The notes under the pieces: generated by a model
Databases searched by the model: none
Told to the model about the DNA's origin: nothing
The model's input: only the letters and a program-made list of their open reading frames with translations
Shown here: in pieces, positions 25,601-33,679 of the stretch
Position numbering within the stretch: the first letter of the stretch is position 1
Layout of the letters: each line of letters begins with the position of its first letter
NCBI GenBank assembly: GCA_021806235.1
Contig: JAJZXU010000015.1
Coordinates: 1 to 38,357 of the forward strand
DNA: 38,357 bases
From: Thermoplasmata archaeon
GTDB taxonomy: Archaea > Thermoplasmatota > Thermoplasmata > Thermoplasmatales > Thermoplasmataceae
Reading direction: 5' to 3'
Translations under genes and position numbers: made by a program

Positions 25601-26257
25601 ATCATACTTTTCCTCATACTCAACCAGAATTTTATTTGGAGCCAGGTCTTCAAGAGAAACTATTACCCTCTCAGATCCGCCAATTATAAAATATCCTCCG
25701 GGATCGGTTGGGTCCTCATCAACATACCTCAATTTTTCCTCCTTTGTTGCATTTATCGGGCCATTATTTTTTTCTATGTACTGATCCAGGTTCTCCCTGG
25801 ACAGTGTACATATTTTTGATCTTACCATTACTGGTATTTCACCAATTTTTATTGTATTTATATCCTTCTCTATGCCATCCTCAACGATTTTTAATCTCAG
25901 CATTATGGGTGACATATAGTTTAAATCCCTTAACCTTGCTTCCTGCGGTGTTATCTGGTTTGAGGCACCGGATGCCTCCTTTATTTCCGGCCTTTCCACC
26001 CATATTGTTGGGTCACCCGTGGGTTTGCCATTATCCAGCTCACGGCCAAAATATATTTTTATTTCCTTACCGCGTGTTTTTGCAGAATCAAGTTCAATAA
26101 CTCCCGGTTCAGCATCATCTGAAATTTTGGTCTCATCAACAATCTGCTGCATAATATTATCCGGATTGGTTTTTGAAGCATAAAAATAGTTTATTGAATC
26201 AATCTGATAATTTACAACGCTTTCTGCCTTAAAAAATGCATCTAAAATTGGGTTCAT
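22670..26257 (-). CDS. rpoB: RNA polymerase subunit B, unsplit
   Basis: Second largest subunit (Rpo2), 1195 residues in one piece; many other euryarchaea split it into B' and B''. Visible hallmarks are [10 protein letters not shown], the hybrid-binding [30 protein letters not shown], and a C-terminal zinc site CGNPTCGH...CPVCGN about 35 residues from the end. The ATG at 26257 overlaps the iscB stop (ATGA), and its GGAGG ribosome-binding site lies seven bases upstream inside the last iscB codons. In relatives rpoH precedes it directly. Confidence 0.97.
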
Positions 26258-27495
26258 CTGGTCGCCTCCAGGGATACTCCATTCTTTAAGAGTGGGAGGA
26301 ATTGGAGATTAAATTTCAAGCCTTTACCATACCTTCTTAACTCTACCTTCTTTACATTTACATCCATCTTTTTTTCACCTTTTTTAATAATTACACTTTT
26401 ACCATAACTGTGTGTTCCCACTACGTTCCACTCCTTTTTCTGGAAGATAACAGTATCTCCCGGTTGCAATGAATACCTTCTCCTCCGTATAGAGGGTTTA
26501 AACCCCTTCCTGTTCAGTTGCAGGCAGCGGTTATTCCTTCTTCTCTGGGAAACCATAAACAATGGTGCTCTGTTCTGTACTGATCCACCGGCTATAACGA
26601 ATGCATCGTTTGCATGTGTTTTTTCTATTCCAAGGGAAATGCGGTTTTTCTTTGTTATGGAACCTAAAGTAGTTTTACATCCCAGTAGCCATGCTATTTT
26701 TTGCTTTACAACATTCATAAATGGGGTTTCTTTAAGAGACCTCTGTGCATTCTTCAATGTTTCGGGATGATTAAACTCCTCTGCTGTCATATTTCCCTTC
26801 CTCTGGTTGCATTTATGACATGATATGGTAAGGTTTGATACCATATTTGAACCTCCTCTTGATTTCGGAATGATGTGCTCTACCTCCAATGGTGTATTTT
26901 CTTTTCCACAGTATGCACACTTCCTGTGGAATTTTTCAAGAAGGTATTCCCTTATTTCATACCCCTGGAGTTCACCCTGCTGGTACTCTATGCCAGATAT
27001 TTCCGGAGCTTTCATTTTATGTGCATCAAATTTTGCAATTTCAATAATGGTTTCAGATACAGGAATGATTTTTTTAATCTTCTCAATCAGTCTAATATGG
27101 GCTTCGAGCTTGTGTTCAATGCTTGGTGCCAGCCACCCTTCTCTATGATTCCTGTTCATGAATCTTGATTTTCTGTACCATGTGTTACGGTTTCTTCTAT
27201 TTCTTCTGTACATGGACTTTTCCTTCATGAGATCTGGAATATCAGTTCTTATTACAGCTTCTCCAGAGAGTAATTCTGCCTTTGCCGTCACTGTCGAGAA
27301 TCCTATGTGCTTATACCCGGGGTCTATTCCAAGCTTAACAGGCTGTTTCGTCTCACCTGTTGCGTATAGTAGCTGTATAGTGAATGGTGATCTCTGTACA
27401 ACCTTTGCCTTGCCTTTTTTTAAGAGTTTTCTCGCCTTAGCTGGTGTTGTTGGCATTAATGGTTGGTTTCGCATGTTTAAAACGGGAACTCTCAT
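26254..27495 (-). CDS. iscB: IscB RNA-guided nuclease
   Basis: Transposon-encoded ancestor of Cas9 that uses an omega-RNA to cut DNA. From the preferred ATG 27495 it has 413 residues: PLMP domain ([20 protein letters not shown]), RuvC-I with Asp58 (LGIDPG), Arg-rich bridge helix ([19 protein letters not shown]), RuvC-II with Glu152 (IIEIAKFD), an HNH domain with CAYC and CHKC zinc pairs and His207 ([12 protein letters not shown]), RuvC-III with His294/Asp297 (EKTHANDAF), and a basic target-binding C terminus. All these residues look intact. The frame is open from 27681, but the extra 62 codons coincide with hairpins of the omega-RNA. The last 18 codons run over the element's right end into the rpoB ribosome-binding site. 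G+C is higher than in rpo genes. Confidence 0.92.
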
Positions 27496-27756
27496 GTCCC
27501 GTACAGTCATGCCTGACTGTAGGTCCACATCGGGGCCGTTAGAAGAGGTTTTTAAACCATGCACACTGAGAGTTTCCTCTCTGTTTAATGCACTGTCACA
27601 GTTGCCACAGGCTTGTGGAGCACCCGTGGGTGTGTATGTATCTCTCTTTCCTAACTTCTGCTTTTCCTTTATGTTTTTCATATTTTCAAAGCCCCCTAAT
27701 CAACTCTTTCGTTGCCCTCACGGGACAAGCCCACGCTTTAGTGGTGGGCAGTCGGT
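26258..27756 (-). mobile_element. IscB-type (IS200/IS605-like) element inserted between rpoH and rpoB
   Basis: The whole interval between the rpoH stop and the rpoB start is element sequence: omega-RNA on the left, iscB, and an imperfect right-end hairpin around CTCCCACTCTTAAAGAATGG at about 26275-26297. There is no TnpA transposase here or elsewhere in the window, so the element is non-autonomous. Exact ends cannot be set without an empty-site relative; these limits are the maximum. Confidence 0.75.
27483..27756 (-). ncRNA. Omega-RNA (HEARO-type) scaffold of IscB
   Basis: A run of strong hairpins begins right after the rpoH stop: GCCCAC/GTGGGC (27749-27729), CCC-GTGA-GGG, CAAC/GTTG, CCACA/TGTGG, GAGAG-GAAA-CTCTC with a GNRA loop (27581-27568), ACAGTCA-GGCA-TGACTGT (27520-27503) and CGGGA/TCCCG (27501-27483), the last enclosing the iscB ATG. 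A 5' ACCGACTGCCCACC segment and a start codon buried in the last helix are what I recall of HEARO RNAs. In IscB systems the guide is the sequence immediately 5' of the scaffold. Confidence 0.8.
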
Positions 27757-28017: not shown

Positions 28018-28028
28018 ATCATCACCAA

Positions 28029-28102
28029 CGGGTCCGAGGGGGTTTGAACCCCTGACCGCCTGGTTAAAAGCCAGACGCTCTACCTAGCTGAGCTACGGAC
28101 CC
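28029..28102 (-). tRNA. tRNA-Lys (anticodon TTT)
   Basis: A full 74-nt cloverleaf: acceptor GGGTCCG/CGGACCC, D stem GCTC/GAGC, anticodon stem TCTGG/CCAGG with loop CTTTTAA, and T arm AGGGG-TTCAAAC-CCCCT. Discriminator G, CCA not encoded, no intron. The gene sits at the head of the RNA polymerase operon. Confidence 0.95.
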
Positions 28103-28130
28103 ATAACATGTAGTCAGCTATATTACTCAG

Positions 28131-28335: not shown

Positions 28336-28878
28336 TTAGTGAATGATAGATATGTAATCACCTGATTTATAAAGGTCTGTACCACATTTCTTAATTAAAA
28401 CCTGTTCTAAGCATTTTTCTTTACTGGCTAAGCCAATAAATCTATTTTTCTGTTTTTTTATTAAATGTTTCATCTGATCTATAATATTATATGTGTCTTC
28501 GTAAATATATAGCACATAGCAGATATTTTTATTTTCATAACAATTTTTATTAAGCAATTTTTTTATTTTCTCAAATGCTTTTTTAGTGCCATCATACTTA
28601 TTATACATACTTTTCATAATCTCTGATATCTCTCCCCCCTTTTTCGTATTTTTTGTATATTTTAATTCTATAAAAAATATATATTTATCATTAATTAATA
28701 TGGAATCACAGTGTTTCTGGTTATTATATATTTTGCCATCCAATTTTTCTACATTGATTATAAGATTTAATACTCCTTTATAAGCAAATCCACAATTATT
28801 CTCACATATTTCAACACTGTTTGAATCTGTACCGGACCCAATTGAAAGTGTATCATTGCTAATTTTTATCACCATCAT
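28336..28878 (-). CDS. PD-(D/E)XK-type nuclease partner of the ATPase
   Basis: A 180-residue protein with no family I can name. A nuclease core is suggested by CDSILINDKYIFFIELK: Asp58, then a hydrophobic strand ending Glu71-Leu-Lys73, which matches the D...ExK arrangement of restriction-endonuclease folds. Helices rich in Lys follow (KSMYNKYDGTKKAFEKIKKL). The first 20 nt overlap the end of the ATPase gene in another frame, so the two are coupled. Low G+C with many ATA and AAA codons. A decayed relative of its N terminus lies at 31066-31155. Confidence 0.55.
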   Translation of the reverse strand: MMVIKISNDTLSIGSGTDSNSVEICENNCGFAYKGVLNLIINVEKLDGKIYNNQKHCDSILINDKYIFFIELKYTKNTKKGGEISEIMKSMYNKYDGTKKAFEKIKKLLNKNCYENKNICYVLYIYEDTYNIIDQMKHLIKKQKNRFIGLASKEKCLEQVLIKKCGTDLYKSGDYISIIH

Positions 28879-30508
28879 TTTTTAAGGAATCGAATGCCCA
28901 GTTAAACAGGTCATCTATTACATCTGTTATGCCGGGAATATTATTTTTCATATCATTCCTGCTTACCTCTCTGGAATTACCCTTATCAATATAATAAAAA
29001 ACCAGTTCATCTTCCGGTTTATTGGCCAGGGCATGGAATGAATTTTTAGGTATTTCTTCCTTATATATTTTTTTTATTAACTCTATTATCTCTGATTCAC
29101 CTATGTTATTGGTTATAATATGCTGTATAACAAATGCCATAGTATCGCTATGTGTTGAGAAAATTATCTTTATATTCATTTTTCTGGAAATGTATATCAA
29201 AAATATGCCCATTATAATCTGTGTAGTTATATGCAACTGTGCCTCCGGTTCTTCTATTATAATTAAATCATTCGCATTCGATGATATTACCGGCAGCATT
29301 ATTCCTGTAATCTCTTCCACCATAGCAGAAGATAAGTTTAAGCTTATTGAGCCATCTTTTGAATATCTATATTTTAATTCACCGCTATTCTTATCGTTTT
29401 CTATGTTGCCCCGCATTATTACCTCAAAAAATCGTTTGATATCATCGTTAAGGTCCTTAAGTGAAGATTTACCGGTATTCAACCATTTAAAATAGGTTGA
29501 AAATGGGGCATTTTTAAGATTGCTTAAAACATCTAAAGCCTCCATGGGTTCATAAATATCTCCTGCTGAATTGTTAAAAAGTTGAACTATGATATTTCTA
29601 CCATACGGTATGAATTTAACGGAACTTAATCCGGATATGTCTAAGATGGATGATCTAAGGTTGGTGAGATAAAAATCTATAAGATAATCAACTATCCTTG
29701 ATGTCATTTCAGATATAAAGATACTTGTGTATGGGAAATCATGATAAACTAATATAGGGTTTCTGCCTGTTATATAAGGTTCTCCAAAAATAATTTGATT
29801 TGATTCGTTTTTATCCACAATTAATTTCAAATTAAAGTTTGCACTTATCCCCTTTTCAGAAAAGTTGAATTTTACATTTTCAGGATTTACCTTTAATGGA
29901 TATTTTCTTAATGCCCTGCTTATTTTATAATATTCCTCCGGGTTACCAGTTCTGGCCAGATAATATGTAAATACATTTCTTTTATCCTGTTCCGCATATA
30001 CTTTTACGCCTTCTGGGCTCTCTGATATCGCCTCTTTTATTAATGTATTAATGTTTTTTCCATTGACCTTTATAGCACCTAACTTACCGGTATTCACGTA
30101 ATCCGTTAATGTTTTTGTAAAAACCGATTTTATTATATTCATTATACCATCGGATTTTAATTCATAATTAAGTTCTATCTCCTGATTGTATAGAGTTATG
30201 TTATCATGGACGCTGGCCTTAACATGTTCCGACACAATGTTTTTAATTTCTTCTTCTATAGATTTATTCATGTTTGTAACTTCAAATTTAGCTACTTCAT
30301 CAGGAAGAACGTTTTTTCTGATCATGCTCTTAATTTCCTGATACCGTTTGTCATCAAGCAACTGGAAAAACCAGTATATAGACCTTAAAATATAACCTTT
30401 CCCGGTATTTGGCAGACCCAAAATACCTGTTAAATCCTTTACATTAAAGGATGCATGTTTAATGCTCCCGATTTCATTTATTTCAATTTTAATTCTATTT
30501 TCCACCAT
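28859..30508 (-). CDS. ABC/OLD-type AAA ATPase of a two-gene module
   Basis: A 549-residue ATPase with the split architecture of OLD, RecF and AAA_15/21 proteins: Walker A GLPNTGKG at 31-38, a long insert (about 55-390), a signature-like SSAMVEE (393-399), Walker B LIIIEEPEAQLH at 415-426 and the switch STHS at 451-454. The residue after the Walker A lysine is Gly38 rather than Ser/Thr, which is unusual for a magnesium-binding P-loop. No TOPRIM domain is present; the catalytic partner is presumably the overlapping nuclease. ATPase-nuclease pairs of this shape (Septu, PARIS, Gabija) defend against phage; a similar role is inference. Its leader is duplicated at 32485-32570. Confidence 0.65.
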   Translation of the reverse strand: MVENRIKIEINEIGSIKHASFNVKDLTGILGLPNTGKGYILRSIYWFFQLLDDKRYQEIKSMIRKNVLPDEVAKFEVTNMNKSIEEEIKNIVSEHVKASVHDNITLYNQEIELNYELKSDGIMNIIKSVFTKTLTDYVNTGKLGAIKVNGKNINTLIKEAISESPEGVKVYAEQDKRNVFTYYLARTGNPEEYYKISRALRKYPLKVNPENVKFNFSEKGISANFNLKLIVDKNESNQIIFGEPYITGRNPILVYHDFPYTSIFISEMTSRIVDYLIDFYLTNLRSSILDISGLSSVKFIPYGRNIIVQLFNNSAGDIYEPMEALDVLSNLKNAPFSTYFKWLNTGKSSLKDLNDDIKRFFEVIMRGNIENDKNSGELKYRYSKDGSISLNLSSAMVEEITGIMLPVISSNANDLIIIEEPEAQLHITTQIIMGIFLIYISRKMNIKIIFSTHSDTMAFVIQHIITNNIGESEIIELIKKIYKEEIPKNSFHALANKPEDELVFYYIDKGNSREVSRNDMKNNIPGITDVIDDLFNWAFDSLKNDGDKN

Positions 30509-30569
30509 ATGTAAGCACTTGTTTCTTTAATGGATTATGATAATGTTATATTTACATATTCACACCCAA
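30484..30569. repeat. 86-nt direct repeat, copy A (ATPase promoter and first codons)
   Basis: It covers the ATPase promoter region, its ATG and first eight codons. By eye 78 of 86 bases match copy B at 32485-32570 without gaps, in the same orientation, 2001 nt apart. Confidence 0.85.
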
Positions 30570-30868
30570 GCATACCTGAAGGTTATCCCTGTACGGTTTA
30601 AATCTGGCATAGTTTTGATAAGATCCGAATCTGAACTGGCTGAAGATATGCTGAAGAATATGGAGATCGAATACCCTGAGAAGGTAGTGGATGGTGCACA
30701 GACAAAATGACCTAACTCTCACATAGGAAAGCAGTAAAATATTAGTTAAAACTATAATCATACAAAAATTTATGTGCGGAAATCAAGTTGGAATCAAATA
30801 AATGCATAATACTATTTAAAACCTTTATATAAATAATAGTTAAATAATTCCAAAATCTATAAGAGAAA

Positions 30869-31015
30869 TTAGTTCTTAGAATTCTTTATATTTACTATTC
30901 CCCATCCAATAAGATGACCGGTAATAAGACCTAAAAGCTCATCATCGGATTGCTTGCCGATTTCGTATCCGGCTACCGTTGAAACTCCCAGTATAAGTAG
31001 GTCCCATGCATCCAT
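30869..31015 (-). CDS. Small hydrophobic protein of 48 residues
   Basis: The frame reads MDAWDLLILGVSTVAGYEIG, then KQSDDELLGLITGHLIGWGI and a short polar end. It suggests one or two short hydrophobic helices. A strong minus-strand TATA (31046-31031) is centred about 25 nt before the ATG, supporting a leaderless gene. It lies just downstream of the decayed nuclease relic on the same strand. No family recognised. Confidence 0.4.
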   Translation of the reverse strand: MDAWDLLILGVSTVAGYEIGKQSDDELLGLITGHLIGWGIVNIKNSKN

Positions 31016-31065: not shown

Positions 31066-31203
31066 TTATTGTTCAATATCTATAATCATGTCCACAGAAC
31101 CTTTACAGGAAAAGCCACAACTATTTTCAGATATTACAGCAGAATATGAATTGCCGCTAATCTTGAAATTTTTCTGGAATTGCTCTTATCAATATAATAA
31201 AAA
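31066..31203 (-). pseudogene. Remains of a second ATPase-nuclease copy
   Basis: On the minus strand 31203-31162 reads FYYIDKSNSRKISR, matching FYYIDKGNSREVSR near the C terminus of the intact ATPase (residues 504-517). Then, after a deletion, 31155-31066 reads SAVISENSCGFSCKGSVDMI and IDIEQ, matching SVEICENNCGFAYKGVLNLI and INVEK at the N terminus of the intact nuclease. The order and strand are the same as in the intact pair. Confidence 0.75.
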
Positions 31204-31642
31204 CGTGTACCTGTATAACTTTGTTGCAATATTCATTAAAGCCTCATTATACACAGCCAGAGAAAATTTATTGAATTTATTTTAATATAAATATTTTCAT
31301 AGGCAATTCCAGAATAAATAGTTACGGGTTCAGTAATATGTAATGTATTAACAGGCAGTGTTTCCATATTTATCGAAATATTATCTAATCATTCATCAGG
31401 TACAGTAACAATATTGAGGAGACGGTTGTTCCATGGGTTTTTAGTAAATGTCTGATGAAGCTATACAAATATAAAATGTGTATTGTGCAAACTTCGTAAT
31501 GCGATCTTCCGGGAGTTAAAGGATAATATGGCATCTATATCTATTTTGCCTGGTGAAAAATAACGAAAAAAACGGCACAGGAATATAGCACAATACTTAA
31601 ATACTGATAAATAATTGATTTTTATAAGGGAGCGACAATAAT

Positions 31643-32407
31643 ATGATGGATTATAACAAAATGAATGAAATAATAAAAAGGGTAGATGGTCACAGAAAGA
31701 TGCCGGATTTTGAAGATGAATATAACAGGAGGGTGAATAGATCAGTTCGTGGTATTGACACTCACAGTCTAATAAAAACCATGGCAGAATTAATATGCTA
31801 TAGCCAGAATGCCAGGGCACAGCAGGTTACCGATATGATAGACAAAGGATATCTTGATATGGCATTTAACAACTTTAACCAATCAGGAATAGCGGATCTA
31901 AACTCTCAGGGTATTATAGATAAATACTGGAAATATCTATCACCCATAAGATTCAAAAACAAGGTTCAGAGAATTATAGATTGCTGTGAAATAATTTCTG
32001 ATGGTTTTCCTATTGTAGATCTCATTGAGAAATTCCCGGGACAGATACGTAACATGAATGATATTAACTTATTCTGGAAAAATTTTAGAGAACTCCAGGA
32101 TTCGATGAAGAACGTTAAAATGCCATTTTATCAAAGCTCAACAACATTACTTCATCTTCTAATGATGCTTGGATTTGATTGCATAAAACCCGATACTATA
32201 GTAATGAGGGTTGCTATAGAAGAGCTTGGCATTGTGGGGAGTGAAAAGAGGGAAAATGATCGGATTGGAGTGGTCAGGGATATTCAGGATTACTCAGTAA
32301 ATAATAAAATAAAACCCTCTATAGTTGATTTTTATCTGTTGATTGAGGGGGGTCAGACCTGGGCAAGAAAATTTGTTGATAATGAATTTAAATCTGTATT
32401 CTACTGA
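31643..32407 (+). CDS. HhH-GPD/Tag-like DNA glycosylase homologue (tentative)
   Basis: A 254-residue, mostly helical protein. The segment LLHLLMMLGFDCIKPDTIVM at about 169-188 recalls the helix-hairpin-helix region of DNA glycosylases, where a loop of the type GxxKPD precedes a helix. AELICYSQNARAQQVTDMID at 48-67 could be the base-pocket helix. A clear catalytic residue cannot be named. GGGAG precedes the tandem ATG codons. The gene runs opposite to the ATPase module and occupies the space between the relics of its second copy. If a glycosylase, it could repair alkylated bases or act on modified phage DNA. Confidence 0.4.
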   Translation: MMDYNKMNEIIKRVDGHRKMPDFEDEYNRRVNRSVRGIDTHSLIKTMAELICYSQNARAQQVTDMIDKGYLDMAFNNFNQSGIADLNSQGIIDKYWKYLSPIRFKNKVQRIIDCCEIISDGFPIVDLIEKFPGQIRNMNDINLFWKNFRELQDSMKNVKMPFYQSSTTLLHLLMMLGFDCIKPDTIVMRVAIEELGIVGSEKRENDRIGVVRDIQDYSVNNKIKPSIVDFYLLIEGGQTWARKFVDNEFKSVFY

Positions 32408-32484
32408 AAATTAATTTTTTGATTGCTGTACTTTATTATGATTTTAAAATTTTAGTTCCAGCCGGCATTATATATTTTTATCCG

Positions 32485-32570
32485 CAATTTTAATTCTATT
32501 TTCCACCATATGTAAACACCTGTTTCTCTAATATATTGTAATAATGTTATATTTACACATTCACACCCAA
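32485..32570. repeat. 86-nt direct repeat, copy B (orphan ATPase leader)
   Basis: The copy keeps the promoter-like part, ATG and the codons MVENRIKI, then diverges (ADKNI) to a stop after 13 codons. It marks the 5' end of a lost second ATPase gene on the minus strand. Confidence 0.85.
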
Positions 32571-32622
32571 TCAATGGCATTATTTTCTGTTATGGTATAT
32601 TCCCTGAATAGCCCTAAAATTT

Positions 32623-32662: not shown

Positions 32663-33679
32663 ATGAAAGTTAATATAAATGGTGAAACAAAGACAATATT
32701 AGCAGTATGGTATGAGAATAATGAGGTAAAATTAATAGATCAGAGGAAAATTCCAGAAAGTGTGGAAATCTTTTCGGCAAAAAATAGTGATGATGTATAC
32801 TATGCCATAAAGGATATGGTTGTCCGTGGTGCACCGGCAATAGGTGTAACCGCTGCCTATGGCCTGGCTATGGCAAATAAAAATAAGGAGGATATGGATG
32901 AAGCCATTAAAAAGATATCATCATCAAGGCCAACCGCATATGATTTATTCAAGGCGGTAAATTATATGAAGGAGAATAAATTTTTAGAATCATCAGCAAG
33001 GAGATATGCAATGGAAATAACGGAAAGGTCAAAGAAAATAGGGGAGTTTGGAAATGAATTAATAGGGCCAGGTGATAAAATTTTAACACACTGCAATGCC
33101 GGAGCCTTAGCCGTTGTTGACTGGGGTACAGCGCTGGCCCCAATGAGAATTGCACATGATGCCGGCAAAAATATATTTGTTTACGTGGACGAAACCAGGC
33201 CGAGATTGCAGGGGGCAAAATTAACGGCATGGGAACTGCAGCAGGAGGGAATCAATTATTCAATTATAGCTGATAATGCCGCAGGATATTTCATGCATAA
33301 AAATGAGATAGACCTCGCAATTGTCGGTGCGGATAGAATTGCATCAAATGGTGATTTTGCAAATAAAATAGGCACATATGAAAAGGCTGTCCTGGCAAAG
33401 GTTAATAACATACCTTTCTACGTTGCTGCCCCTGGAAGTACCTTTGATTTCTCATTAAAATCCGGAGATGAAATACCAATAGAGGAAAGGGATGAAAACG
33501 AGGTTTTAATAGTAAATGATAAAAATCTTGGTCCAAAGGAAGGACATGCTAAGAATCCGGCATTCGATGTAACACCGCATGAATACGTTACCGCATTTAT
33601 AACCGAGTACGGCATTTTCAAGCCTGAGGAATTAAATAAACTACATAAAATAATTCAAAAGGATTTATTTATGAGGTAA
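32663..33679 (+). CDS. mtnA: Methylthioribose-1-phosphate isomerase
   Basis: Isomerises 5-methylthioribose-1-phosphate to the ribulose form in methionine salvage. Rossmann-like fold of the eIF2B-alpha family, 338 residues. Signature segments are VRGAPAIGVTAAYG (54-67), THCNAGALA with catalytic Cys144, DETRPRLQGAKLTAWEL (176-192) and GADRIASNGDFANKIGTY with catalytic Asp224. These motifs favour MtnA over the related ribose-1,5-bisphosphate isomerase. The 3' end overlaps trpS tail to tail by 25 nt. Confidence 0.92.
   Translation: MKVNINGETKTILAVWYENNEVKLIDQRKIPESVEIFSAKNSDDVYYAIKDMVVRGAPAIGVTAAYGLAMANKNKEDMDEAIKKISSSRPTAYDLFKAVNYMKENKFLESSARRYAMEITERSKKIGEFGNELIGPGDKILTHCNAGALAVVDWGTALAPMRIAHDAGKNIFVYVDETRPRLQGAKLTAWELQQEGINYSIIADNAAGYFMHKNEIDLAIVGADRIASNGDFANKIGTYEKAVLAKVNNIPFYVAAPGSTFDFSLKSGDEIPIEERDENEVLIVNDKNLGPKEGHAKNPAFDVTPHEYVTAFITEYGIFKPEELNKLHKIIQKDLFMR

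What the first reader, a model, noticed from the sequence alone, without database searches (positions are those of the whole stretch)
31066..32570. Ghost of a second ATPase-nuclease copy beside the intact one
Three relics lie in the right order on the right strand: the 86-nt leader repeat with the first eight ATPase codons (32570-32485), an ATPase C-terminal scrap FYYIDKSNSRKISR (31203-31162), and a nuclease N-terminal scrap (31155-31066). The sequences have diverged from the intact copy, so this was an old tandem duplication or a second acquired paralogue, not a recent error. It shows rapid turnover at the locus.
Basis: seen in the sequence. Interest (0 to 1): 0.75.

Follow-up and report, generated by a model that had tools for sequence, protein, structure and literature searches.

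The report
Decayed second defence operon in hotspot
Beside an intact ATPase-nuclease gene pair that looks like an antiviral system in an archaeon's genome lie real but tiny remains of a second, related pair, in a spot where such genes come and go; this is a good example of a known kind of process rather than a new one.

Summary
The leader repeat is 89 nt (30484-30572 / 32485-32573, 90%). The ATPase C-terminal scrap (31161-31202; 11/14 aa) and nuclease scrap (31069-31152; 13/28 aa) are matched by 1/1000 and 0/1000 shuffles. They lie 8 nt apart, on the right strand and in the right order. They are remnants of a second ATPase + PD-(D/E)XK-like nuclease operon, resembling PD-T4-4/WonAB systems.

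Three refinements:
(1) The site is a hotspot. tRNA-Lys and mtnA lie 149-303 nt apart in eight of ten genus genomes. The window and G002 carry about 4.6 kb there, sharing the ATPase/nuclease pair but not the genes beside it; a neighbouring genus carries a DpnII-type restriction-modification system.
(2) The relic stretch is a mosaic: IS1634-family transposase tail, 48-codon ORF, a MITE at the edge of the ATPase scrap, and an intact glycosylase-like gene where the ATPase body should be.
(3) Ages disagree. Relative to the window-G002 split, the scraps are 3.0 times as diverged (1.7-5.7), the leader copy 0.64 times (0.2-1.6), bootstrap P 0.003. One simple tandem duplication fits poorly; a divergent paralogue whose leader was later converted fits better.

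No genome searched has two intact adjacent copies.

The parts
28028..28103 (-). tRNA-Lys(TTT), left edge of the insertion hotspot
   Evidence: ARAGORN; Rfam; synteny
28336..28878 (-). intact nuclease-like gene, 180 aa, PD-(D/E)XK-type motif D58...E71-x-K73; weak NERD match
   Evidence: model pLDDT 79.6 in one of five models; Foldseek top hits include restriction endonucleases but none is significant
28859..30508 (-). intact AAA_15/OLD-type ABC ATPase, 549 aa, overlapping the nuclease gene by 20 nt
   Evidence: Pfam AAA_15 E 7e-9; PADLOC PD-T4-4_A E 1.3e-19
30484..30572 (-). leader copy 1 (promoter-side sequence plus first 8 codons of the intact ATPase gene)
30573..30793 (+). truncated IS1634-family transposase C-terminus and probable element end, starting where leader copy 1 stops
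   Evidence: homologous fragment in G001:C137 matches IS1634 family transposase, E 1.9e-17
30872..31015 (-). 48-codon ORF with one 66% paralogue at G000:C20
31069..31152 (-). relic of a nuclease N-terminus (matches residues 18-45), followed by a stop
31161..31202 (-). relic of an ATPase C-terminus (matches residues 504-517)
31207..31472 (.). MITE-like dispersed repeat with terminal inverted repeats (GTAYCTGTATAGCTTC), at the edge of the ATPase relic; imperfect target duplication AAAACGT / AAAATGT
31643..32407 (+). intact 254-aa ORF in place of the relic ATPase body; likely a 3-methyladenine DNA glycosylase I-like protein; its one relative in the order lies in an island with Dam methylase, PD-(D/E)XK nuclease and type III-like restriction genes
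32485..32573 (-). leader copy 2, of the relic operon, abutting the native mtnA flank
32663..33679 (+). mtnA-like gene (IF-2B family), right edge of the hotspot

Best explanation
31069-31202 plus 32485-32573 are the decayed remains of a second, related ATPase + nuclease operon that once lay between the intact operon and mtnA, in an insertion hotspot between tRNA-Lys and mtnA. The second copy was most likely a divergent paralogue rather than a fresh tandem copy. It lost its middle and 3' part by deletion; a MITE landed at the edge of the ATPase remnant, an IS1634 element left a tail beside leader 1, and a glycosylase-like gene now occupies the place of the ATPase body. Leader copy 2 is younger in sequence than the scraps, most simply through local gene conversion or recombination between the two leaders. 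The intact pair probably works like PD-T4-4/WonAB systems: an ABC ATPase senses infection and controls a PD-(D/E)XK nuclease. The relic has no coding capacity left and no function of its own. Shown here: the relics, the mosaic, the hotspot and the age discordance. Inferred: defence function, paralogue origin, gene conversion, order of events.
For: Three collinear relics, the two scraps beyond shuffles. Hotspot by synteny: 149-303 nt in eight of ten genus genomes, about 4.6 kb in the window and G002, a DpnII-type restriction-modification system in G026. Mosaic of IS, MITE and ORF pieces. Joining the flanks of the MITE extends the ATPase match upstream (score 63 to 68; 13 of 1000 shuffles of the far flank do as well), as expected if the MITE landed inside the relic. 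Divergence relative to the window-G002 split: scraps 2.97 (1.71-5.71), leader 0.64 (0.22-1.63), bootstrap P 0.003. PD-T4-4_A profile matches in all six family members; nuclease motif conserved in all six except K to R in one.
Against: The scraps total only 126 nt, so age estimates are rough, and the ATPase scrap alone (ratio 1.5, 0.5-5.3) does not exclude a younger origin. Nothing of the ATPase middle is left, so leader 2 is tied to the scraps only by order, strand and distance. No relative closer to the scraps than the window's own operon was found.
Confidence: 0.72

Rival explanations
1. Simple tandem duplication of the operon, then decay of the distal copy by deletion and insertions.
For: Order and strand of leader, ATPase end and nuclease start match a tandem copy; leader 90% identical and found nowhere else in the genome.
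Against: Scraps and leader differ in age relative to the window-G002 split by about 4.6-fold, bootstrap P 0.003. Nuclease scrap and intact nuclease differ at 30 of 84 nt, while the orthologues differ at 9 of 84.
Confidence: 0.17
2. Leader 2 and the scraps are unrelated: the leader was duplicated by a later local rearrangement (for example during insertion of the glycosylase segment), and the scraps are debris of another, older related operon.
For: Age discordance; leader 2 directly abuts the native mtnA flank while leader 1 abuts a truncated IS1634 element, so both outer ends of the repeat look like rearrangement junctions.
Against: Requires two independent events to give the order, strand and spacing expected of one operon.
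Confidence: 0.08
3. Chance matches in AT-rich DNA.
For: Scraps are short; one of 1000 shuffles reaches the ATPase score.
Against: 0 of 1000 for the nuclease; both lie adjacent, in order, on one strand; no other genomic site matches the scraps as well as the intact operon does.
Confidence: 0.02

Closest known systems
PD-T4-4 and WonAB type systems (OLD-type ABC ATPase + PD-(D/E)XK nuclease; PMC12137116, PMC9519451, PMC10952713)
   Same: Two-gene organisation, ATPase paired with a small nuclease; ATPase profile match E 1.3e-19; PD-(D/E)XK-like motif in the small protein
   Different: Archaeal; nuclease too diverged for a significant match to the known B components; Walker A reads GLPNTGKG (Gly where Ser/Thr is usual) in window and G002; activity untested; the feature in question is a dead relic
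Chromosome hotspots littered with remnants of earlier insertions (PMC8791490)
   Same: Defence genes of different kinds at one conserved site; pseudogene debris and mobile-element fragments around an intact system
   Different: Here the relic belongs to the same system type as its intact neighbour, and its leader and coding parts have different apparent ages; no integrase was seen in the window's island
PARIS (AriA AAA_15 ATPase + AriB)
   Same: AAA_15 ATPase match, E 1.8e-11
   Different: The partner carries a PD-(D/E)XK-like motif; AriB is predicted to carry a Toprim domain (PMC10952713)

Membership tests
PD-T4-4 / WonAB-type two-gene systems (intact pair) | OLD-type ABC ATPase with Walker A, signature, Walker B and H-loop motifs | tested here: met
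   Invariant G31/P33/G36/K37, S394-A-M396, E419-E-P-E422 and T452-H-S454 across six family members; PADLOC PD-T4-4_A matches all six. The Walker A Ser/Thr is Gly in window and G002.
PD-T4-4 / WonAB-type two-gene systems (intact pair) | Adjacent PD-(D/E)XK nuclease | tested here: inconclusive
   D58 and E71 invariant and K73 (R in one) in six members; one of five models confident; best Foldseek hits include restriction endonucleases but E 0.06 at best
PD-T4-4 / WonAB-type two-gene systems (intact pair) | Anti-phage activity | not testable with these tools
   needs an infection assay
Pseudogene of the same operon (the relic) | Similarity beyond chance, right order and strand, broken reading frames | tested here: met
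   codons 9-503 missing; the two scraps are 8 nt apart where the intact operon has 130 nt
Simple tandem duplicate | All parts of the copy equally diverged from the intact copy | tested here: not met
   leader 0.64 versus scraps 2.97 times the orthologue distance, bootstrap P 0.003; gene conversion of the leader could mask it
Insertion/defence hotspot | Conserved flanking genes with variable content, including defence genes, between related genomes | tested here: met
MITE (31207-31472) | Short dispersed non-coding repeat with terminal inverted repeats and target duplications | tested here: met
   At least ten copies in two genomes; inverted ends and 8-bp duplications visible in copies L075, L076, L078, L079; the window copy's duplication is imperfect

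The most novel reading that the evidence does not exclude
The shared leader (promoter plus first codons) acts as a recombination anchor, so that different ATPase-nuclease bodies are swapped behind one conserved start at this site, with the relic as the discarded body.
Probability: 0.07. Interest if true: 0.6.

Novelty: new member of a known kind. Interest (0 to 1): 0.3.

Why it matters
It documents, in an archaeal genus, a conserved tRNA-Lys/mtnA site with an empty state, two filled states sharing one defence-like system, and the debris of an earlier related system. It also shows that a conserved leader repeat should not be used to date the rest of a relic.

Tried and rejected
A trace of the ATPase middle by nhmmer, tblastn and blastn: none. 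Relics in the corresponding G002 spacer: none. Two intact adjacent copies: none in 61 relatives or 390 genomes of the phylum; the second operon in this genome, at G000:C12, is a distant paralogue at another site. One genome per species is held, so other strains could not be checked. Relatives in viral contigs and plasmids: none found. A structured RNA in the MITE: no (z 0.3). Homology of the sequence beyond the G002 leader with the mtnA flank, to find which leader is the original: not significant. Structure of the 254-aa protein: model too poor to use (pLDDT 46). The frame 31245-31192, which resembles ATPase 422-439, lies in the MITE and overlaps the scrap, and was rejected as chance.

Full report
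Observation. The leader repeat is real, 89 nt long, 90% identical, and occurs twice in this genome and once in G002. The ATPase scrap (31161-31202) and nuclease scrap (31069-31152) score E 4.6e-4 and 9e-6. Only 1 of 1000 and 0 of 1000 dinucleotide shuffles reach these scores. nhmmer built from the two intact operons finds the same three places and nothing more. In the intact operon 130 nt separate the corresponding codons; in the relic 8 nt do. Almost all of the ATPase, and everything after nuclease residue 45 including the catalytic motif, is gone.

Surroundings. The nearest named record that carries the same ATPase is a Thermoplasmata MAG, TL2-1.bin13. tRNA-Lys and mtnA are neighbours, 149-303 nt apart, in eight of the ten genus genomes. 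The window and G002 carry about 4.6 kb there. They share the ATPase-nuclease pair (ATPase 95% aa, nuclease 79% aa), but between its leader and mtnA G002 has two helix-turn-helix genes where the window has the relics and the 254-aa ORF. G026, of another genus in the family, has two DNA methylases and a DpnII endonuclease at the same site. G019 and others carry other genes there, such as an ABC transporter and a transposase. The site is an insertion hotspot with defence genes in several states.

Mosaic. From leader 1 to leader 2 there are: an IS1634-family transposase tail (30573-30793); a 48-codon ORF with one paralogue elsewhere in the genome; the nuclease scrap; the ATPase scrap; a MITE at 31207-31472 whose relatives are dispersed in this genome and G002 with inverted ends and 8-bp duplications; and an intact 254-aa ORF. 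Joining the flanks of the MITE lets the ATPase match run on upstream (score 63 to 68), matched by 13 of 1000 shuffles of that flank. This suggests that the MITE landed inside the relic.

The 254-aa ORF. It has one relative among 117 genomes of the order, 45% identical. That relative matches methyladenine glycosylase weakly (Pfam E 7e-4; NCBIfam E 6e-3) and sits near a Dam-type methylase, a PDDEXK_11 protein and type III-like restriction genes (the methylase and restriction genes named from the sequences; PDDEXK_11). The gene is therefore probably a defence-island glycosylase-like protein, and not part of the relic.

Age. At the leader, the window copies differ from each other at 8 of 79 sites and leader 1 differs from G002 at 12 of 79. 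At the nuclease scrap the relic differs from the intact copy at 30 of 84, the orthologues at 9 of 84. As a ratio to the orthologue distance: leader 0.64 (0.22-1.63), both scraps 2.97 (1.71-5.71), bootstrap P 0.003. Neutral decay since the species split is not enough: synonymous divergence between the orthologues, over both lineages, is 0.22-0.35, and the nuclease relic stands at 0.49. The scraps therefore come from a copy that had diverged before the split, while leader 2 is younger or was homogenised.

What the intact pair is. The ATPase matches AAA_15 and best PD-T4-4_A, with weaker matches to AriA, Old and GajA, and in the PDB an OLD-family endonuclease. The small partner carries a D...ExK motif across six family members, with weak fold support. 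The nearest described systems are PD-T4-4 and WonAB, which PMC12137116 places in a larger family of ABC-ATPase sensors paired with nuclease effectors. Function here is inferred only.

Verdict. The reading 'second copy, old, turnover' stands. 'Tandem duplication' is the weaker of its two options, and leader and scraps should not be treated as one event. Review literature already describes hotspots as littered with remnants of previous transfers (PMC8791490, read), so this is a clear example of a known kind.

Noticed in passing
26254-27756: IscB gene (NCBIfam E 2e-113) with its HEARO/omega RNA (27519-27756) inserted cleanly between rpoB and the rpoH-like gene; absent from G002 and every other genus member compared.
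   Followed up: partly
31207-31472; L075-L087: A MITE family of about 275 bp with 8-bp target duplications, at least ten copies in G000 and G002; two G002 copies are 98.6% identical, so it was active recently.
   Followed up: partly
30872-31015 and G000:C20:27597-27737: Two 48-codon ORFs, 66% identical, found in no other genome of the family.
   Followed up: partly
28859-30508: Walker A reads GLPNTGKG in window and G002, where the other relatives have Ser after GK.
   Followed up: no
L042 7448-9696 (G000:C12): A second, distant ATPase-nuclease operon of the same type elsewhere in this genome (23% ATPase identity in the alignment).
   Followed up: partly
L059 2830-10385 (G078:C28): Island with Dam-type methylase, PDDEXK_11 protein, glycosylase-like gene and type III-like restriction genes; a possible glycosylase-containing restriction system.
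   Followed up: no
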